Below are positions 15,174-22,498 of a stretch of 64,000 bases of DNA, piece after piece. Both the position numbers and the translations under genes were made by a program. Positions within the stretch are counted from its first letter, which is position 1. Each line of letters starts with the position of its first letter. The DNA comes from Flammeovirgaceae bacterium (GTDB lineage: Bacteria; Bacteroidota; Bacteroidia; Cytophagales; Cyclobacteriaceae), in NCBI GenBank assembly GCA_027487845.1, contig JAIYCV010000042.1, positions 518,210 through 582,209 on the forward strand, written 5' to 3'. The notes beneath the pieces were generated by a model. The model was not told the DNA's origin and did not search any database. It saw only the letters and a program-made list of their open reading frames with translations.

Positions 15174-15782
15174 TCAGAACAAACTAAGCTGTTTGTATTC
15201 TATCCAGTTTATAGGATCACCATGAATACCTGAAGTATATTTTCGTTTTATTGATTTGATAAACTCTTCTACCAAGACATCGTCTTCAATGGTATAATAG
15301 TCTCTTAATTTGCTACATAGTGGCTTGTAAGCGTCTTCAACTTCTATGTGATTATTTCCTAAGTAAATGAAGTGATTTGAGATAAGGACATACTTTGCTT
15401 GGGTGTCTTGCTTAAGATTAGCTTCATTTAATTTACCGCCATGGAGGCTATGGTGGGAATCCAACTGGCACCATTCATTATCTTCTTTATGGTAAATGTT
15501 ATCGCCATGAATTTGAACTAAACTTCCATTCAAAATGGGTTTCTTTCTCGCAAACCTTTTATCGCTCCAATATTCCTCAAAATTGATTTTCTCGGAAACT
15601 CTCATAAGAAATATTAATCTGTTGAGGAGGCCATTCTGTTTGGCTCCTGTTCCTATAATCCAATCATTAACATCAGCCTTTTTTCTGATATGAGGTTTGC
15701 AACACGCTAAAGTGCAGTAGCCAAAAAAAGGATTAGGTGCAAAACCGTAATCCCTAGTTATTTTATAAGAATAATAGCTCAT
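15174..15782 (-). CDS. Nmad2-type nucleotide modification associated protein
   Basis: The 202-residue protein matches what I know of the nucleotide modification associated domain 2 (Nmad2). It opens with YSYKITRDYGFAPNPFFGYC (residues 4-23), continues with TLACCKPHIRKKADVNDWIIGTG (24-46), and has a RVSEKINFEEYW segment. Nmad domains were defined by gene neighbourhood with DNA-base hypermodification enzymes; their reaction is unproven. The start is the ATG at 15782, which overlaps the upstream stop as TAATG. A TTG nine bases upstream is less likely. It is the last gene of the six-gene operon. Confidence 0.75.
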   Translation of the reverse strand: MSYYSYKITRDYGFAPNPFFGYCTLACCKPHIRKKADVNDWIIGTGAKQNGLLNRLIFLMRVSEKINFEEYWSDKRFARKKPILNGSLVQIHGDNIYHKEDNEWCQLDSHHSLHGGKLNEANLKQDTQAKYVLISNHFIYLGNNHIEVEDAYKPLCSKLRDYYTIEDDVLVEEFIKSIKRKYTSGIHGDPINWIEYKQLSLF

Positions 15783-16273
15783 TATTGGCAACTAATTCTG
15801 GTGACATTGTATGCAGGTGTTTTGGGTTCCCCGCTTGAATTACACCAGCCTACATCTTCCCCTTCAAGCCCAGCAATAATCTTGTCAGAGTTCCAACCAA
15901 CTAGCCCATGCCCATATTTTTCAAGGCTTTCGGGTATATCAGAATCCTTTGCGCCTTGCATAAAAACTCCAATTATTCTTTTTTCTTGCCTATGTGCTTC
16001 GTCTATTTCCCAGTTTACCCAATCTCTAGAATGGGTTTCCGAACCTATTAAGACGACCACAGTTCCAGCCCAAGACATTTTCATCTTCAAAAGGCGCCTA
16101 ATTGTATCATCGCTAACTGTTTTTTGATTTAACCTATCTAGGTTTTTAGGTTTTGCTCTGATCGAACTGTTCCTAACAATATAATCTTTACCAGCTAAAA
16201 GATTCGTAAAATCCGTCACCGCTTTGTCATCTTTATGATGATGGCTGATGAAAACGTTTTTTGATGTACTCAT
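15782..16273 (-). CDS. ThsB-type TIR domain protein
   Basis: The 163-residue protein is almost entirely a TIR-like domain of the MTH538/DUF1863 class, the class that includes Thoeris ThsB. It opens KNVFISHHHKDDKAV and has the strand TVVVLIGSETHSRDWVNWEIDEAHRQ, where Glu89 is the expected NADase/cyclase catalytic Glu. Thoeris ThsB proteins make NAD-derived signals after phage infection. Here the Thoeris partner ThsA is absent, but a SLOG protein, the kind of domain that senses such signals, lies two genes upstream. It overlaps the upstream gene by 4 bp (ATGA). Confidence 0.85.
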   Translation of the reverse strand: MSTSKNVFISHHHKDDKAVTDFTNLLAGKDYIVRNSSIRAKPKNLDRLNQKTVSDDTIRRLLKMKMSWAGTVVVLIGSETHSRDWVNWEIDEAHRQEKRIIGVFMQGAKDSDIPESLEKYGHGLVGWNSDKIIAGLEGEDVGWCNSSGEPKTPAYNVTRISCQ

Positions 16274-17298
16274 TTCCGTTTTATTAGATGATTAATGTTC
16301 CATTTAGGAGGGAAGTAAAATTCAATTGATTCTTTTGGCTGAATGCAAAACCTTTGTTTAATCCTATTTCTATTTGAATAGCCTAAAACATCAGGATGTG
16401 CAACTCTTGAGTACTTATCGACCTCACAAAAGATATTCTGGCAATCAATCAACTGCAAATTCCTGCCCCACAGAGTATTAAAATCAAGCCCTAATTTATC
16501 AAATTCGGATTCTTGGTTGTCTGCCATCATTTTGATGATATCTTCAAATGAGTATTCGCCAAAGTCAACAAAGCATTTAGCGATGCCGTCCTTTGCTCCT
16601 GGACCAGCCTTCACAAATTCTCCTTCATTGAAATCAGTTAGAGGACCGTAATTAATATCTGTTACATATTGGTAAGCCAAGAATTCACCAATAGTCGGAT
16701 ACTTGAGCAATAATTTGTATGCAGATTCCATACTACCACAAAGTTGGAGTTGTTGAGGAACTTGCTCGTTAATCATCTTTTCAATTAGCTTAAGATGATT
16801 TTGATGTTTTTTTTCAAAGCCAAAAGCAGAACGCCCAGATGCCATAATGTATGCAGCAGAGTAAATCGGAATTTTATTACCCATTAGCTCCATTAGCAGC
16901 TTGTGATATTTTTTGAATGAATAATTCTTAAAAGACAACTCTCCTAGTTCATCTTCTAAAAACTCCCAAGTTGAAATACGGTTAAATATTTTAAACAGAA
17001 GTGTACGAAAGAATATTTCATTTGGGCTTTGATCTCCTTTATAGATAACATTCTTGATCAAGTATTGACTGACTCTGTCTGCTGCTCTATATACATTTGT
17101 AAATTTGTATTGATTCAAAATCGAATCTTTTGACCAAGGGAACAATTCCCCATTCAGTTTTTTAAAAAAAATATTCTGCCTTTCTGTAGCAAACCGCCAA
17201 TAGGTTTTGTAAACAACACTTGGCTTCGGCTTTGACTTTTTTCTAATAATCAAGAGGCCATCTGTTTTGTTATGAGTTTCCAATTTCTCTAGCTGCAT
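16270..17298 (-). CDS. Base-hypermodification protein, HMUDK-helical/aGPT-pyrophosphorylase-like
   Basis: The 342-residue protein resembles the helical domain shared by 5-hydroxymethyluridine DNA kinases and alpha-glutamyl/putrescinyl-thymine pyrophosphorylases, phage enzymes that build hypermodified thymines in DNA. The marker is YKFTNVYRAADRVSQYLI (residues 64-81), followed by FFRTLLFKIFNRISTWEFL, and a glycosylase-like turn FNEGEFVKAGPGAKDGIAKCF (223-243). No P-loop is present, so it is not a complete kinase and is closer to the pyrophosphorylase type. No phage genes surround it. It is the fourth gene of the operon, 1 bp after the SLOG gene. Whether its target is DNA, RNA or free nucleotide is unknown. 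Confidence 0.72.
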   Translation of the reverse strand: MQLEKLETHNKTDGLLIIRKKSKPKPSVVYKTYWRFATERQNIFFKKLNGELFPWSKDSILNQYKFTNVYRAADRVSQYLIKNVIYKGDQSPNEIFFRTLLFKIFNRISTWEFLEDELGELSFKNYSFKKYHKLLMELMGNKIPIYSAAYIMASGRSAFGFEKKHQNHLKLIEKMINEQVPQQLQLCGSMESAYKLLLKYPTIGEFLAYQYVTDINYGPLTDFNEGEFVKAGPGAKDGIAKCFVDFGEYSFEDIIKMMADNQESEFDKLGLDFNTLWGRNLQLIDCQNIFCEVDKYSRVAHPDVLGYSNRNRIKQRFCIQPKESIEFYFPPKWNINHLIKRK

Positions 17299-17299
17299 G

Positions 17300-18265
17300 T
17301 CAGGATGTAAAGCGATTTGTTAAACCCTTTAAAATTAAATACACAATCTCACTTATGTGAGGAGTAACGGCAAGTCTTTTATTTTCCAATTCAGTTAATC
17401 CATTTGCCTCTGCTAGTCCTTTAAATTCTATTTTACTCAGCATTGAAAAGTATTCATTATAGTCTATTGGGCTATTCAAATGTCTTGAATTGTATAGTTT
17501 AATCATATTCATGTATTCTATATAAGTTGAATAACCTTCATTAGAGAAAGTAGCTGATTGAGTGCCACTCAAGGCATTAATGGCATCCTTTGTTATGCCT
17601 CCAAAGGCACCTACCAAATAGACAGGGCGATTATTACGCAGTGCGATCAAAAGTTCTTCTAAAACTCCGGGACATTTTCCTTTGAACCCTTTTGCCCGTC
17701 CGCCTATAAATATTCGTGCATCGCAGTCAACGTCCATTTCCTCTCTCATCTTTGTTAAGCATCTTGACCATATATACAGATTTTCACTTGAGTCTGGCTT
17801 TAAAAACTCGCTGGTATCCACAATCGCTAGATCATTGGGTGGGGCTACTCTCTTGAAGGAAACATTTAGCTTCAACTCCGCTTCTTTTTCTTGTTTTAAG
17901 TTTATAGATAATGGCCATGCCAAGTAACTATAGAATCGTTCATAGGGTGCTAATTCTTTATCTGCCTTGTAGTAAGCTAATAAATCAAACATAAGCTCTG
18001 TAAATCCACCTTGCCTCATATCACCGCCATAGGCTACCTTTCCGCCTAGTGCCAAAATGTATCGGGCTATTTCAATCATAGCATCTTTCAAATGAGCAAT
18101 TCCATAGCCCAATTCATTTAAGTTGTCGCTTTCTGAAATAGATACGCCAATTGTCCTGCCCTTTAATAGAAATTTTCTGGAAAGAATTTCTCGCTTCTCA
18201 GGCACAACGAACTCACCAGGTCCTCTATCGTCACCAATATTTGAGATTTTACTTTCCGCGCTCAT
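17300..18265 (-). CDS. SLOG domain protein (predicted nucleotide/NAD-derivative sensor)
   Basis: The 321-residue soluble protein has a Rossmann-like SLOG domain. The first part GRTIGVSISES (36-46) and ALGGKVAYGGDMRQGGFTELM (72-92) bind nucleotide in this superfamily, and DARIFIGGRAKGFKGKCPGVLEE (182-204) corresponds to the GGxxT/E loop of LOG and DprA proteins. SLOG domains in Thoeris ThsA and similar systems bind cyclic ADP-ribose-type molecules, while LOG enzymes cleave nucleotides; both are possible here. The last 100 residues are helical and not recognised. The ATG overlaps the stop of the tandem-TIR gene (ATGA). Confidence 0.8.
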   Translation of the reverse strand: MSAESKISNIGDDRGPGEFVVPEKREILSRKFLLKGRTIGVSISESDNLNELGYGIAHLKDAMIEIARYILALGGKVAYGGDMRQGGFTELMFDLLAYYKADKELAPYERFYSYLAWPLSINLKQEKEAELKLNVSFKRVAPPNDLAIVDTSEFLKPDSSENLYIWSRCLTKMREEMDVDCDARIFIGGRAKGFKGKCPGVLEELLIALRNNRPVYLVGAFGGITKDAINALSGTQSATFSNEGYSTYIEYMNMIKLYNSRHLNSPIDYNEYFSMLSKIEFKGLAEANGLTELENKRLAVTPHISEIVYLILKGLTNRFTS

Positions 18266-19446
18266 TTCCTTTTCGATATTGATGGTAATGTCAACGAAGT
18301 AATGAATACAAAATCATCATCCAATTGGTTAAGGATTTGCATTTCTTCTGAACCCAATGGCGGGTCAGGATAGATAACCAAGGAATATTGCTCGCCCATA
18401 TTTAATCCTCTTTTTTTCAGTTGAAGAAAATTAAAGAGTTCTGGTGAGGTGCTGAGTATTTTATGAGTCTTGATGCCGTATAGATCAGTAAGTGAATCAA
18501 GTAATGCTTTTGTGTAGAGATTGAAAAGAACTTGCTCTAAAGTCAAATCTATTATCTCAATAAAATTATCTTTGAATCTAATTGATGGGTAATTTCCTAA
18601 ATATGGGAATGCTCTTTTTTCTCCGTTCTGAACTGCATTCACAATTACAATAGGACAACCTGCCGTCTTTGCTTCCAAGACTTCAATTCTACACCATTCT
18701 CTATCTGAATAACTGTCAGATTGGAAAACAACTAATGCGGATTCGTGTGCTGCCTTTTTGATTTCTTCTCCAAAATTTGATCCATATGCAATATCAGTCG
18801 TATCAAAAAATGTCTTCAATTGCGTTTGAGAATTTATATAATCCCTAAACTTTAGCGCATCAAATTTTGATTCATCATGCTTAGAGTGGCTAATGAATAA
18901 TTTTACAGGTGGCGAAATTGCTAATGACTCAACTTCGTCAGTAGCCTTTTTCATATTCATTAACAATCTACATAGTTCGTGTAGGATTGGAGTCTTGATT
19001 TGAGAATTAACAATTTCGCTTCCGTTCTTATCACAACCTTGTTTACTTTTATCCGTGCGGATATAATTGATGGCAGAAAATTTTATTGATACATTGTAGG
19101 CGCTTTTTGACAGTGCCACAGGGTAAACTCTTCTCTTATCTTTCTCGGCCTCACATTTGTCAAAAATGCTGTCAAGGTAGTTTCCGTAGTTCTTATCAAG
19201 AACAAATTCATCCGACACTAAAGCAATAACGGCTGTATATTCAGATTCACTAAAATCAATTTCTATTGGCTGTTTTGTATCAGATATATTCGTGTTCCTG
19301 AAATAAACAGGAATACCCATTGATCGAATCAATGGTTTGGTTGAATCTCTACATAAAACGGAATAAAGGAAATCAGCAATTTGCTGTCCTTCCAAATAGT
19401 CCGGATGCCAAACTATAAAAACTGAAAGTGGTGTTCTGAAACTCAC
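18262..19446 (-). CDS. Tandem TIR domain protein
   Basis: The 394-residue protein holds two TIR-like domains. The N-terminal one (residues 6-130: PLSVFIVWHPDYLEG, then VIALVSDEFVL) is divergent and no catalytic Glu is evident. The C-terminal one (181-293) is standard: VKLFISHSKHDESKF, VVFQSDSYSDREWCRIEVLEAK with Glu255 as the likely catalytic residue, then PIVIVN. The last 60 residues (SLVIYPDPPLGSEEMQIL) may be a further small domain. The start is GTG, joined to the MazG stop as GTGA. Possible roles are NAD consumption as effector or signal synthesis. Confidence 0.85.
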   Translation of the reverse strand: MSFRTPLSVFIVWHPDYLEGQQIADFLYSVLCRDSTKPLIRSMGIPVYFRNTNISDTKQPIEIDFSESEYTAVIALVSDEFVLDKNYGNYLDSIFDKCEAEKDKRRVYPVALSKSAYNVSIKFSAINYIRTDKSKQGCDKNGSEIVNSQIKTPILHELCRLLMNMKKATDEVESLAISPPVKLFISHSKHDESKFDALKFRDYINSQTQLKTFFDTTDIAYGSNFGEEIKKAAHESALVVFQSDSYSDREWCRIEVLEAKTAGCPIVIVNAVQNGEKRAFPYLGNYPSIRFKDNFIEIIDLTLEQVLFNLYTKALLDSLTDLYGIKTHKILSTSPELFNFLQLKKRGLNMGEQYSLVIYPDPPLGSEEMQILNQLDDDFVFITSLTLPSISKRK

Positions 19447-20327
19447 TTCTTTCCTAAATAAATTAGTGACCTGTTTTTTCTACTCACCAAAACCCTGCCT
19501 CCATTATTTTCCCTAAGTTGATTATAGATTTGATAAGAGGCTAAAATTGCCTTTTCCCATTGTTTACCGCTGCACTCGTTAACTTCGGTTTTCATAACCA
19601 GATTTTTTACTTTCTTAATAATTCCTGAATCCACACTTTTACTGTATTTCAATAAGTCGTGGTCAAGTGCATGGTGATAAATATAAAGCGAAACAAGTTC
19701 TTCGGTAATTTGAGACCTCGCCCCATCTTCATTTTCATCAATAGCAGGATCGCTTTTCCTTTTTTTCTTTAAAAGTTTGCGTAACACCGGTGACCAGCCT
19801 AAAACTGCTAAATATCCATAATGAAAAATATCATGGAATCTATAGCCATCATCTTCGTAAGTGTTATCAGTCAGCGGATCGCCAATCGGTTGGTCGTCTC
19901 GTTTATCAATAATTTGTAATTTGTTTTTCCCATCTTCGGTATAACTCCGGAATTCAATTTCAAACTCTTCGGGAAATCTTTCCTCCTTGGGATATTCAAG
20001 ATCGAAATCTTTGTACAATGAATCATCACCTGCTAAGAATCGATCATGGGTTTTAGCAAGATTTTGGGTCGCGATATCTTCTAATGTTAAATTATTCTGA
20101 GACGCGATTGTCGAAAGATACCATAAAACATCCCCTAACTCCTCAGCTAGTTTATCTTTAAATGCAACATAAGATTCTCCGTCCTTAAGTTTTATCTTTA
20201 ACTGGGTTACTACCGATCCTATTTCGCCAATTATTCCTAAGAAAGGAACCATTTCTGTATACTTGGCGTCAGAGGCACTATCTTGGATAGTTTCTCTTGC
20301 CTTTTTTTGGTATTCGTTAAATTCCAT
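19443..20327 (-). CDS. MazG-like nucleotide pyrophosphohydrolase with MazG-associated C-terminal domain
   Basis: The 294-residue protein opens the six-gene operon. Residues 1-95 are a MazG-like all-alpha NTP pyrophosphohydrolase fold (FLGIIGEIGSVVTQLK, then EELGDVLWYLS), which would cleave NTPs to NMP and pyrophosphate. The usual third metal Glu of GExGE is Ser38, while Glu35, Glu63 and Asp66 remain. The C-terminal half has YRFHDIFHYGYLAVLGWSPVLR and RKSDPAIDENEDGARSQITEE, a second conserved helical domain found behind MazG in gene clusters with modified-nucleotide enzymes. It may purge unusual nucleotides or act on the system's own signal. Confidence 0.8.
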   Translation of the reverse strand: MEFNEYQKKARETIQDSASDAKYTEMVPFLGIIGEIGSVVTQLKIKLKDGESYVAFKDKLAEELGDVLWYLSTIASQNNLTLEDIATQNLAKTHDRFLAGDDSLYKDFDLEYPKEERFPEEFEIEFRSYTEDGKNKLQIIDKRDDQPIGDPLTDNTYEDDGYRFHDIFHYGYLAVLGWSPVLRKLLKKKRKSDPAIDENEDGARSQITEELVSLYIYHHALDHDLLKYSKSVDSGIIKKVKNLVMKTEVNECSGKQWEKAILASYQIYNQLRENNGGRVLVSRKNRSLIYLGKK

Positions 20328-20943: not shown

Positions 20944-22074
20944 ATGCCGTATCACGTTGATCTATTTGCTTTTTTCATCTTTCTCGGCATTATACAAGCG
21001 CTATTTCTTTCCATTTTCTTTTTCAGCAAGGAGAATCGCAAAATAGAGGCAAACGTATATCAGGGTATTTTAGTGTTGGCAATGGCCGCTTGCACGTTTG
21101 AGATCTTTCTGTGCTACACCGGCTACATAATCAATTGCCTTTGGCTGGTTGATTTTTCTGAATCGCATGCCTTTATCATCGGCCCTGCTTTTTACTTGAT
21201 GGTGAAAAGTCTTATCGATGGCAAGACGGATAGAAGTCGGTATCTCCATTTTGTCATTCCCGTTTTATGGCTCGTTCTTCAGCTCCCATTTTTAATTCAG
21301 TCGGACGATGTAAAATTTAATGCGTGGATTGGTGCTTATCATCCGGCTGGATTATCGTTTCGCAATACCGAAGAAAATTTCTTTAACCCACCTTATCATA
21401 GCGAATTCATTTTACTGCATTTGGCGTTTTATACGGTGTTGGTGTTGGTTACAACCATTCGTGCATTCAAAAAAAGAAACGAATCGTTTTGGAAAACCAA
21501 GCAAACAACATTCGTAAAACTTCGAGGAACCACGCTGCAAATTGTGGTGGTTATCTTTTTAATTTTTATCGTGAAGCTGTTTAACGAAGACGATTTAGGC
21601 GACCACTTTTTTGCCGCTTATATATCCGTAGCAATTTATTTGATGAGCTTTCAGGTAATCAAGCAATCCGGTTTTTTTAAACAGGCTAGTTTGGCCGATC
21701 CTCAACAACAGAAATACAAAAGTTCTTCGCTTTCGCTGGATGATCAAAACGAAATTCTCAAAAAATTAAAACTGGTGATGGACGAAGAAAAGCCTTTTTT
21801 GAAACCCGACTTTTCGTTGCCGGAATTAGCGAATCAATTGAAATTATCTGTTCATCAACTTAGTCAAGCCATTAATGATGGTTTAGGAAAGAGTTTTTTT
21901 GAGATGACTGCCGAGTACAGAATTGAGCAAGCGAAGGTTTTATTGAAAGAGAAATCGCACATTAAGGTAGAAGAGATAGCCGAAGAGGTTGGCTACAATT
22001 CCAAATCGTCATTTAATACTGCTTTTAAGAAGTTGACCGGAATGACTCCCAGCGAGTGGAGAAGCCTCATTTAA
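20944..22074 (+). CDS. AraC family regulator with multi-pass membrane N-terminus
   Basis: The 376-residue protein has about seven membrane helices in residues 1-245 and a cytoplasmic AraC-type HTH pair in the last 100 residues (FSLPELANQLKLSVHQLSQAIND and KVEEIAEEVGYNSKSSFNTAFKKLTGMTPSEWR). This one-component membrane regulator design is common in Bacteroidota. Target genes are unknown; the small membrane protein just upstream is a candidate. Its stop overlaps the stop of the convergent lipocalin-like gene by 8 bp, at the palindrome ACAAGCTTGT. Confidence 0.92.
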   Translation: MPYHVDLFAFFIFLGIIQALFLSIFFFSKENRKIEANVYQGILVLAMAACTFEIFLCYTGYIINCLWLVDFSESHAFIIGPAFYLMVKSLIDGKTDRSRYLHFVIPVLWLVLQLPFLIQSDDVKFNAWIGAYHPAGLSFRNTEENFFNPPYHSEFILLHLAFYTVLVLVTTIRAFKKRNESFWKTKQTTFVKLRGTTLQIVVVIFLIFIVKLFNEDDLGDHFFAAYISVAIYLMSFQVIKQSGFFKQASLADPQQQKYKSSSLSLDDQNEILKKLKLVMDEEKPFLKPDFSLPELANQLKLSVHQLSQAINDGLGKSFFEMTAEYRIEQAKVLLKEKSHIKVEEIAEEVGYNSKSSFNTAFKKLTGMTPSEWRSLI

Positions 22075-22498
22075 CAAGCTTGTATTCCAGACCCGGCCCA
22101 TCGCACATACGCCACGTGCCAACAATCAAATCTGGAGATTCAATGCGCAACTGTTCGCTTTGGTTTCCCATGCAACTGGCAAGCAAATCGAATCCTGTTT
22201 TATAAGTTAGTAACAGGATGGTTTTGTCAGTCGCATCAATAACGTAAGTTCCACTCGCTTCCTTAACTTGGCCGTCTTGCGTGCGCGACTTGTTAAAAGT
22301 ACCGTCTGGATTAAAGATGTAGTGTTCTTGCCAACTCATATCGCTTCCTGTCGTTTCTTTTACACTCCACGATGCAATCATTTTTACGAGCTGCCACTTT
22401 TTGGGTCCTTCAGCCTGTTTTTCATTTTCCACAAATTTGTCAGAACACGAAAAGACGGCAGTCGCCAAAACTAAAGTTAAAATCGTTATCGTTTTCAT
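22067..22498 (-). CDS. Lipocalin-like lipoprotein
   Basis: The 143-residue protein has a lipoprotein signal (LVLATAVFSC, lipobox Cys18). A short beta-rich domain follows, with WQLVKMIASW, YIFNPDGTFNKSRTQDGQVKEASGTYVI, and a terminal LIVGTWRMCDG strand, as in lipocalin_4-type proteins of Bacteroidota. It should be anchored to an envelope membrane. Two Cys residues (in SCMGN and MCDG) could form a disulfide. Ligand is unknown. Confidence 0.75.
   Translation of the reverse strand: MKTITILTLVLATAVFSCSDKFVENEKQAEGPKKWQLVKMIASWSVKETTGSDMSWQEHYIFNPDGTFNKSRTQDGQVKEASGTYVIDATDKTILLLTYKTGFDLLASCMGNQSEQLRIESPDLIVGTWRMCDGPGLEYKLVK

What the first reader, a model, noticed from the sequence alone, without database searches (positions are those of the whole stretch)
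15174..20327. Six-gene TIR/SLOG/MazG operon joined to DNA-base hypermodification proteins
Six minus-strand genes are packed with 1-4 bp overlaps or a 1-bp gap: MazG-like, tandem TIR, SLOG, HMUDK/aGPT-pyrophosphorylase-like, ThsB-type TIR, Nmad2. The TIR and SLOG pair is the logic of Thoeris (TIR makes an NAD-derived signal, SLOG senses it). MazG, HMUDK/aGPT and Nmad2 belong to the modified-nucleotide world, first seen around phage hypermodified thymine pathways. A single operon holding both suggests that detection of, or production of, a modified base or nucleotide is tied to TIR signalling and cell suicide or NAD loss. The parts are known by comparative genomics, but I know of no experiment on this combination. 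Sense or arm, attack or protect, is open.
Basis: partly seen in the sequence, partly recalled or inferred. Interest (0 to 1): 0.92.

Follow-up and report, generated by a model that had tools for sequence, protein, structure and literature searches.

The report
TIR alarm wired to base readers
Six tightly packed bacterial genes, found together again in other bacteria, join TIR and SLOG immune-signalling proteins to relatives of the enzymes phages use to modify their DNA, and likely form an alarm that would be set off by modified phage bases and would kill or stall the infected cell by spending NAD.

Summary
Six minus-strand genes (15174-20327) overlap by 1-4 bp or are 1 bp apart, and each has a domain far above cut-off (the N-terminal half of the 'tandem TIR' is weak). 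The order recurs: exactly in L039, and with extra TIR genes in four more Bacteroidota-type loci. Across 39 distinct SLOG-cluster-2 loci two units appear. One is a receiver, TIR protein plus SLOG, adjacent in 26 and fused in 5. The other is a ThsB-type TIR plus Nmad2 that diverges as a pair (r 0.77; 0.75 after controlling for the receiver); the 22 Nmad2-linked TIRs examined form one pure clade. Fold comparisons hint at base recognition: Nmad2 resembles YTH/EVE/ASCH readers, HMUDK_hel resembles DNA glycosylases, and other loci carry a uracil-DNA-glycosylase relative. SLOG R174 and E204 align with ligand-binding R371 and E403 of Thoeris ThsA. Best reading: a Thoeris-like alarm whose sensor is a modified-base reader. 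It is not Thoeris type I or II, because no SIR2, macro or membrane effector was found. An E. coli relative of the HMUDK-TIR-Nmad2 arm has probably been validated as anti-phage (DefensePredictor; figure not seen). Trigger, signal and effector action are inferred.

The parts
19443..20327 (-). Gene 1: MazG domain plus MazG_C (294 aa). ExxD half of the MazG site kept (E62/E63/D66), first EExxE half looks reduced (motif recalled); MazG_C has invariant H165, D166, H169, E209, E210
   Evidence: Pfam; alignment of 13 sequences (ExxD in 12 of 13, the other is truncated); in phages no match covers 80%, and the 10 of 176 listed lie in residues 1-100
18262..19446 (-). Gene 2: TIR protein (394 aa, GTG start), clear TIR at 184-292 with E255; conserved N-terminal half possibly a degenerate TIR. 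Predicted NAD-consuming effector half of the receiver
   Evidence: Pfam; E255 in 32 of 32; adjacent to or fused with SLOG
17300..18265 (-). Gene 3: SLOG cluster 2 (LD_cluster2, 321 aa), predicted receptor for a TIR-made nucleotide; R174 and E204 align with ThsA R371 and E403
   Evidence: Pfam; weak profile hit to BcThsA SLOG, E 0.011-0.043; R174 in 39 of 39 and E204 in 37 of 39
16270..17298 (-). Gene 4: HMUDK_hel / aGPT-pyrophosphorylase-like protein without kinase domain (342 aa), predicted DNA-glycosylase-like fold
   Evidence: Pfam; 413 phage records with relatives; residues shared with phage relatives; model and fold comparison
15782..16273 (-). Gene 5: ThsB-type TIR (163 aa) with E89, predicted signal-making sensor TIR; member of the Nmad2-linked TIR clade
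   Evidence: Pfam, PADLOC, PDB ThsB1 9.8e-7, tree
15174..15782 (-). Gene 6: Nmad2 (202 aa from the ATG at 15782), predicted YTH/EVE/ASCH-like modified-base reader, partner of gene 5
   Evidence: Pfam; model pLDDT 93.3; fold comparison; co-divergence with gene 5

Best explanation
The six genes lie in one tight array, likely one operon, that likely works as a Thoeris-like anti-phage alarm in which a ThsB-type TIR and its Nmad2 partner would sense modified bases, make an NAD-derived signal, and switch on a TIR-SLOG receiver predicted to drain NAD. Shown by sequence: the packed genes, domain families, catalytic glutamates, ThsA-like ligand residues in SLOG, the recurrent link, and the co-divergence of ThsB with Nmad2. 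Predicted: Nmad2 reads modified bases (fold only), HMUDK_hel is a DNA-glycosylase-fold protein acting on or binding 5-hydroxymethyl-pyrimidine-type bases, and MazG/MazG_C acts on modified nucleotides. Inferred: infection with base-modified DNA or nucleotides activates ThsB through Nmad2; ThsB makes a cyclic ADP-ribose-type molecule; SLOG binds it; the adjacent TIR (E255) consumes NAD and the cell stalls or dies.
For: Recurrence with rearranged order in Bacteroidota, Pseudomonadota, Candidatus Binatota and a cyanobacterial plasmid. TIR-SLOG adjacent in 26 and fused in 5 of 39 distinct loci (L034 dropped as a duplicate of L002). SLOG R174 39 of 39 and E204 37 of 39, aligned with ThsA R371 and E403, which with K388 coordinate 3'cADPR (PMC10022894, passages). 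E255 32 of 32, E89 49 of 49. ThsB-Nmad2 divergence r 0.77 over 20 loci, partial r 0.75 given the receiver TIR over 12 loci (p 1e-4), whereas ThsB against receiver TIR given Nmad2 is -0.06; HMUDK, which is beside ThsB in all 8 loci of that comparison, tracks SLOG (0.91) more than ThsB (0.34). Nmad2-linked TIRs are one pure clade, 22 of 22 in a tree of 57. All 3 HMUDK_hel and all 3 MazG_C genes found in 247 genomes each are beside a TIR-Nmad2 pair. Nmad2 model resembles YTH/EVE/ASCH; the g4 model resembles DNA glycosylases in 49 of 50 rows, many of them OGG1 entries. UDG-family genes stand beside MazG_C in other loci. In L081, L104 and L105 a TIR plus SLOG cluster 3 takes the place of cluster 2 near a TIR-Nmad2 pair and MazG_C-UDG. 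It is on plasmids, and in the two of 16 E. coli genomes opened it lies near conjugation genes.
Confidence: 0.5

Rival explanations
1. The base-related genes make rather than sense: HMUDK_hel, MazG (and TS and dNMP kinase where present) produce a modified nucleotide or mark DNA, Nmad2 reads that mark as 'self' or as a licence, and the TIRs fire when phage activity disturbs the pool or the mark.
For: HMUDK_hel keeps R40, N68, R71, D74, D214, G232, G234, G238, C291, E292, K295 (with L197 and F206) in 15 of 15 defence and phage proteins. Of five phage relatives opened, three have thymidylate synthase or pyrimidine hydroxymethylase within 4 kb, one has none annotated there and one is unannotated. 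Erwinia (L009), Atlantibacter, E. coli and L059 loci add a TS-family protein; the L009 one is nearest in PDB to CMP 5-hydroxymethylase (1.4e-15), ahead of thymidylate synthases (best 1.2e-6) and dCMP hydroxymethylase (5.5e-5); a dNMP kinase (L009, L010) or Nmad1 (L059) goes with it.
Against: The window operon has no TS, no dNMP kinase and no kinase domain, so it could not make a base by the phage route alone; no TS was seen in the UDG-type loci opened; Nmad2 gave no match in the phage records.
Confidence: 0.25
2. MazG, HMUDK_hel and UDG act on the TIR-made signal itself (hydrolysing or exchanging an N-glycosidic base or a pyrophosphate bond), shaping or ending the alarm; Nmad2 is the receptor or sponge of that signal.
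Against: g4, UDG and a reader fold together fit DNA bases better; g4 relatives in phages often lie near base-modification genes.
Confidence: 0.12
3. Two independent defence units share one operon: a TIR-SLOG system and a base-modification or restriction-type system, co-located because defence genes cluster.
For: Either part occurs without the other (L059, L080; 25 of 39 SLOG loci).
Against: Overlapping genes, the same order with or without extra TIRs in six distinct loci (WIN, L002-L005, L039), a TIR directly between HMUDK and Nmad2 in 10 of the 13 HMUDK loci compared, a dedicated TIR clade for Nmad2.
Confidence: 0.1

Closest known systems
Thoeris (ThsA/ThsB), types I and II
   Same: ThsB-type TIR with the catalytic Glu; SLOG with two of the three residues that hold 3'cADPR in ThsA; one receiver with one or several TIR sensors
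   Different: Receiver is TIR plus SLOG cluster 2, with no SIR2, macro or membrane effector found; sensor TIR is tied to Nmad2, HMUDK_hel and MazG_C
DefensePredictor E. coli system with TS, dNMP kinase, 5-hmdU kinase domain and NMAD (PMC13092281; abstract, sections 5 and 7 and passages seen, figure and supplement not)
   Same: The E. coli relative found here, TS-dNMPk-HMUDK-TIR-Nmad2, has that set; it is very probably the same module (my inference)
   Different: The window has MazG_C in place of TS and dNMP kinase, and the TIR-SLOG receiver in the same operon; the text I read gives no mechanism for it
Phage thymidine hypermodification pathways (HMUDK, aGPT-pyrophosphorylase; pathway recalled)
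   Same: HMUDK_hel family; three of five phage relatives opened lie near TS/hydroxymethylase, one also beside glucosyltransferases
   Different: Bacterial operon with TIR and SLOG; no kinase domain, no TS
Nucleotide-centric conflict systems predicted by Burroughs et al. 2015 (gkv1267), cited in PMC13092281; paper not held here, content recalled
   Same: As recalled, families such as SLOG, TIR and MazG were grouped there as predicted defence parts; PMC13092281 says several of its nucleotide-modifying domains were predicted there

Membership tests
Thoeris (type I SIR2-SLOG or type II TM-macro) | ThsB-type TIR with catalytic glutamate | tested here: met
   Pfam ThsB_TIR 7.1e-22, PADLOC ThsB 1.5e-51, E89 in 49 of 49
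Thoeris (type I SIR2-SLOG or type II TM-macro) | ThsA effector with SIR2-SLOG or TM-macro domains | tested here: not met
   No SIR2 or macro domain by Pfam, no predicted membrane span in the six proteins; STALD is under its cut-off (21.3 against 24 bits)
Thoeris (type I SIR2-SLOG or type II TM-macro) | SLOG that binds a TIR-made cADPR isomer | tested here: inconclusive
   Residues aligned with ThsA R371 (39 of 39) and E403 (37 of 39) kept, K388 position not kept; binding not testable
Thoeris type III (NCBIfam ThcB4) | Match over the curated equivalog cut-off | tested here: not met
   Gene 2 scores 34.7 bits, cut-off 220
Phage thymidine hypermodification pathway | TS/hydroxymethylase and a P-loop 5-hmdU kinase beside the helical protein (recalled definition) | tested here: not met
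   None among the six genes; a TS and a dNMP kinase are present in Erwinia, Atlantibacter and E. coli loci, a TS in L059
YTH/EVE/ASCH (PUA-like) modified-base readers, for Nmad2 | Same fold | tested here: inconclusive
HhH-type DNA glycosylases, for HMUDK_hel | Same fold and catalytic acid | tested here: inconclusive
CBASS | CD-NTase cyclase | tested here: not met
   No such domain among the six proteins

The most novel reading that the evidence does not exclude
Nmad2 is a modified-base reader of the YTH/EVE kind that directly gates its own dedicated TIR enzyme, so that the base modifications phages use to hide from restriction enzymes become the trigger of NAD-based immunity; the ThsB-Nmad2 cassette is swapped between operons to change which modification is read, while a constant TIR-SLOG receiver carries out the response.
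Probability: 0.33. Interest if true: 0.92.

Novelty: new variant of a known kind. Interest (0 to 1): 0.72.

Why it matters
Phages modify bases to escape restriction. A defence that treats the modification as the alarm would close that escape and would tie two fields, DNA hypermodification and TIR/NAD signalling. The ThsB-Nmad2 pair makes it testable: exchange the pair and see whether phage range follows. It would also give Nmad2, a named domain whose role I found stated in none of the papers I could search, a predicted job.

Tried and rejected
Phage or prophage origin: SLOG and Nmad2 give no match in 50,697 phage records, SLOG none in viral contigs; set aside. RNA element or tRNA insertion site in the window: none. 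Empty-site comparison in 6 loci from the genus: the AraC-type gene (20944-22074) was found in 6 of 6 and the gene at 22067-22498 in 2 of 6, the permease flank in none, so the insertion site could not be shown. Defence island: of 10 flanking proteins tested only the Fic protein matched PADLOC. Foldseek alone on the g4 model gave nothing below E 1.8. No solved-structure relative by sequence for gene 4 (E up to 1) or gene 2 (E up to 0.01); only weak ones for genes 1 (0.2) and 6 (0.65). STALD search of four genomes found nothing beyond the cluster-2 SLOGs themselves, so no ThsA-type SLOG was found in L059's genome. Kongming (recalled, no call) was considered and set aside: no deaminase or SIR2 among the six genes. 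Paper searches; none of the listings showed a paper on TIR with Nmad2 other than DefensePredictor's domain lists, several searches listed only part of their hits, and key subscription papers are not held.
Full report
Observation. Six minus-strand genes between 15174 and 20327 are packed with overlaps of 4, 4, 4 and 1 bp and one 1-bp gap. Pfam places them as MazG+MazG_C, TIR, SLOG cluster 2, HMUDK_hel, ThsB-type TIR and Nmad2; each protein has a match far over cut-off, and the N-terminal half of gene 2 is weak. The G+C content of 16-20 kb is 0.36, against 0.42-0.43 on the left side and 0.38 on the right. PADLOC recognises gene 5 as ThsB; genes 1, 4 and 6 have no PADLOC match, genes 2 and 3 only weak ones.

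Recurrence. I collected cluster-2 SLOG loci without regard to neighbours: 20 from genome contigs, those from two samples of the window's order and phylum (6 of 390 and 7 of 395 genomes, own genome included), and 8 of the 10 plasmid hits (H8 and H9 are unannotated and were not fetched). After dropping L034, the same contig as L002, 39 distinct loci remain including the window (L009 and L010 are near copies). A TIR protein of the gene-2 type is adjacent to SLOG in 26 and fused to it in 5. By reading, L016, L036, L072 and L073 also have an adjacent TIR, L071 is interrupted by an IS3 transposase, L015 is a contig end, and L011 and L042 have none. A further TIR gene is labelled in 32 of 39. Fourteen of 39 carry Nmad2, 12 MazG_C and 9 HMUDK_hel in the fetched stretch; the Gloeothece plasmid adds one, with a separate HMUDK-MazG_C-TIR-Nmad2 set on the same 22.6-kb replicon. 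For comparison, HMUDK_hel, MazG_C and Nmad2 occur in 3, 3 and 10 of 247 sampled genomes of the phylum, own genome included. All three HMUDK_hel and all three MazG_C genes of that sample are beside a TIR-Nmad2 pair; of the ten Nmad2 genomes four have a TIR next to Nmad2 and six do not, three of these six having Nmad3 instead. Among 16 plasmid records with Nmad2 I opened ten; one is unannotated, and 7 of the 9 others have a TIR directly before it. The window's exact six-gene order is in L039; L002-L005 have the same order with one extra TIR between MazG and gene 2 and further TIRs at the ends. L035, L007, L016, L019, L009 and L010 have rearranged orders.

Two kinds of arm. One is HMUDK_hel-TIR-Nmad2, in Erwinia, Atlantibacter and E. 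coli preceded by a thymidylate-synthase-family gene and a dNMP kinase, in L059 with TS and Nmad1, in Parabacteroides with a radical SAM gene. The other is TIR-Nmad2 with MazG_C and a uracil-DNA-glycosylase relative (L007, L008, L016, L072, L081, L104, L105). L019 and L058 have TIR-Nmad2-MazG_C with no UDG found, and in L106 and L107 the gene before Nmad2 is not recognisable as a TIR. Where complete, both arms put a TIR, Nmad2 and a DNA-glycosylase-fold protein together; the window mixes them. In L081, L104 and L105 the SLOG beside the receiver TIR is cluster 3, not cluster 2. In E. coli the receiver operon and the TS-HMUDK arm are in the same 16 of 5,426 genomes; in the two opened they lie near conjugation genes and ArdC, in one with a broken integrase gene. 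This is probably one mobile element, not 16 independent events.

Residues. E255 of gene 2 is invariant in 32 of 32 and E89 of gene 5 in 49 of 49 TIRs aligned. SLOG R174 is invariant in 39 of 39 and E204 in 37 of 39. They align with R371 and E403 of B. cereus ThsA (profile E 0.011-0.043), two of the three residues that coordinate 3'cADPR (PMC10022894, passages); the third, K388, falls on a variable position. HMUDK_hel shares thirteen fully invariant residues with five phage relatives. MazG keeps its ExxD half in 12 of 13 and its first half looks reduced.

Co-divergence. Across 20 loci, ThsB and Nmad2 identities correlate at r 0.77; over the 12 loci that also have the receiver, the partial correlation given gene 2 is 0.75 (p 1e-4), while ThsB and gene 2 given Nmad2 give -0.06 (L010 and L077 were left out as near copies of L009). 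Without that control ThsB also correlates with gene 2 (0.43), SLOG (0.46) and MazG_C (0.63), and Nmad2 with them (0.58, 0.56, 0.63). HMUDK_hel, next to ThsB in all 8 loci of the common set, follows SLOG (0.91) much more than ThsB (0.34). An example: against the window, L003 has gene 2 at 76% and HMUDK at 71% but ThsB at 38% and Nmad2 at 48%; L009 has gene 2 at 30% but ThsB at 50% and Nmad2 at 48%. The set is small and end-of-operon exchange could add to it.

Reading. The parts separate into a constant receiver (TIR-SLOG) and exchangeable inputs, one of which is ThsB-Nmad2 with base-processing neighbours. That is Thoeris logic with a different effector and an input that looks like a base reader. 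I commit to modified-base-triggered TIR signalling (0.5), with making a modified nucleotide as the main rival (0.25). Results against it are the retained enzyme residues of HMUDK_hel, the TS and kinase in some loci, arms without a cluster-2 SLOG, and Nmad2 genes with no TIR neighbour.

Print. In the held library, DefensePredictor (PMC13092281; abstract, sections 5 and 7, and passages read) reports validated E. coli systems with a 5-hydroxymethyluracil kinase and a thymidylate synthase, its legend lists TS, dNMPk, 5hmdUk and NMAD, and it lists MazG, MazG-C, aGPT-Pplase and a nucleotide modification associated domain as predicted, not validated. That the E. coli module found here is that system is my inference. 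No other paper on Nmad2 with TIR was found by the searches named under Tried and rejected; the original comparative-genomics papers are not held.

Noticed in passing
L081:8169-9910, L104:3525-5252, L105:3400-5141: TIR plus SLOG cluster 3 pairs replace TIR plus SLOG cluster 2 near a TIR-Nmad2 pair and MazG_C-UDG.
   Followed up: partly
L009:6919-7647, L077:20628-21356, L059:9249-9881, L067:5710-6432, L069:10322-10978, L040:10508-11194: A family of 210-242 aa proteins with 1-3 predicted N-terminal membrane spans, most of them beside these TIR or Nmad2 genes, also in L059 where no cluster-2 SLOG exists: a candidate alternative membrane effector (the E. coli copy in L077 by position and span only).
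   Followed up: partly
L060, L061, L063: Nmad2 genes without a TIR are next to Nmad3, a different pairing of the same family.
   Followed up: no
L106:5447-5992, L107:5474-5992: Rhizobium and Agrobacterium plasmids have an acidic 172-181 aa protein in the TIR's place before Nmad2, with a metallophosphoesterase and MazG_C-UDG nearby; no Pfam or TIR-profile match.
   Followed up: partly
window:22617-23984: Fic-type protein near the operon, matching PADLOC SoFic and PDC-S04 models.
   Followed up: no
L035:6625-9279: An 884 aa protein without Pfam match lies downstream of the TIR-SLOG genes.
   Followed up: no
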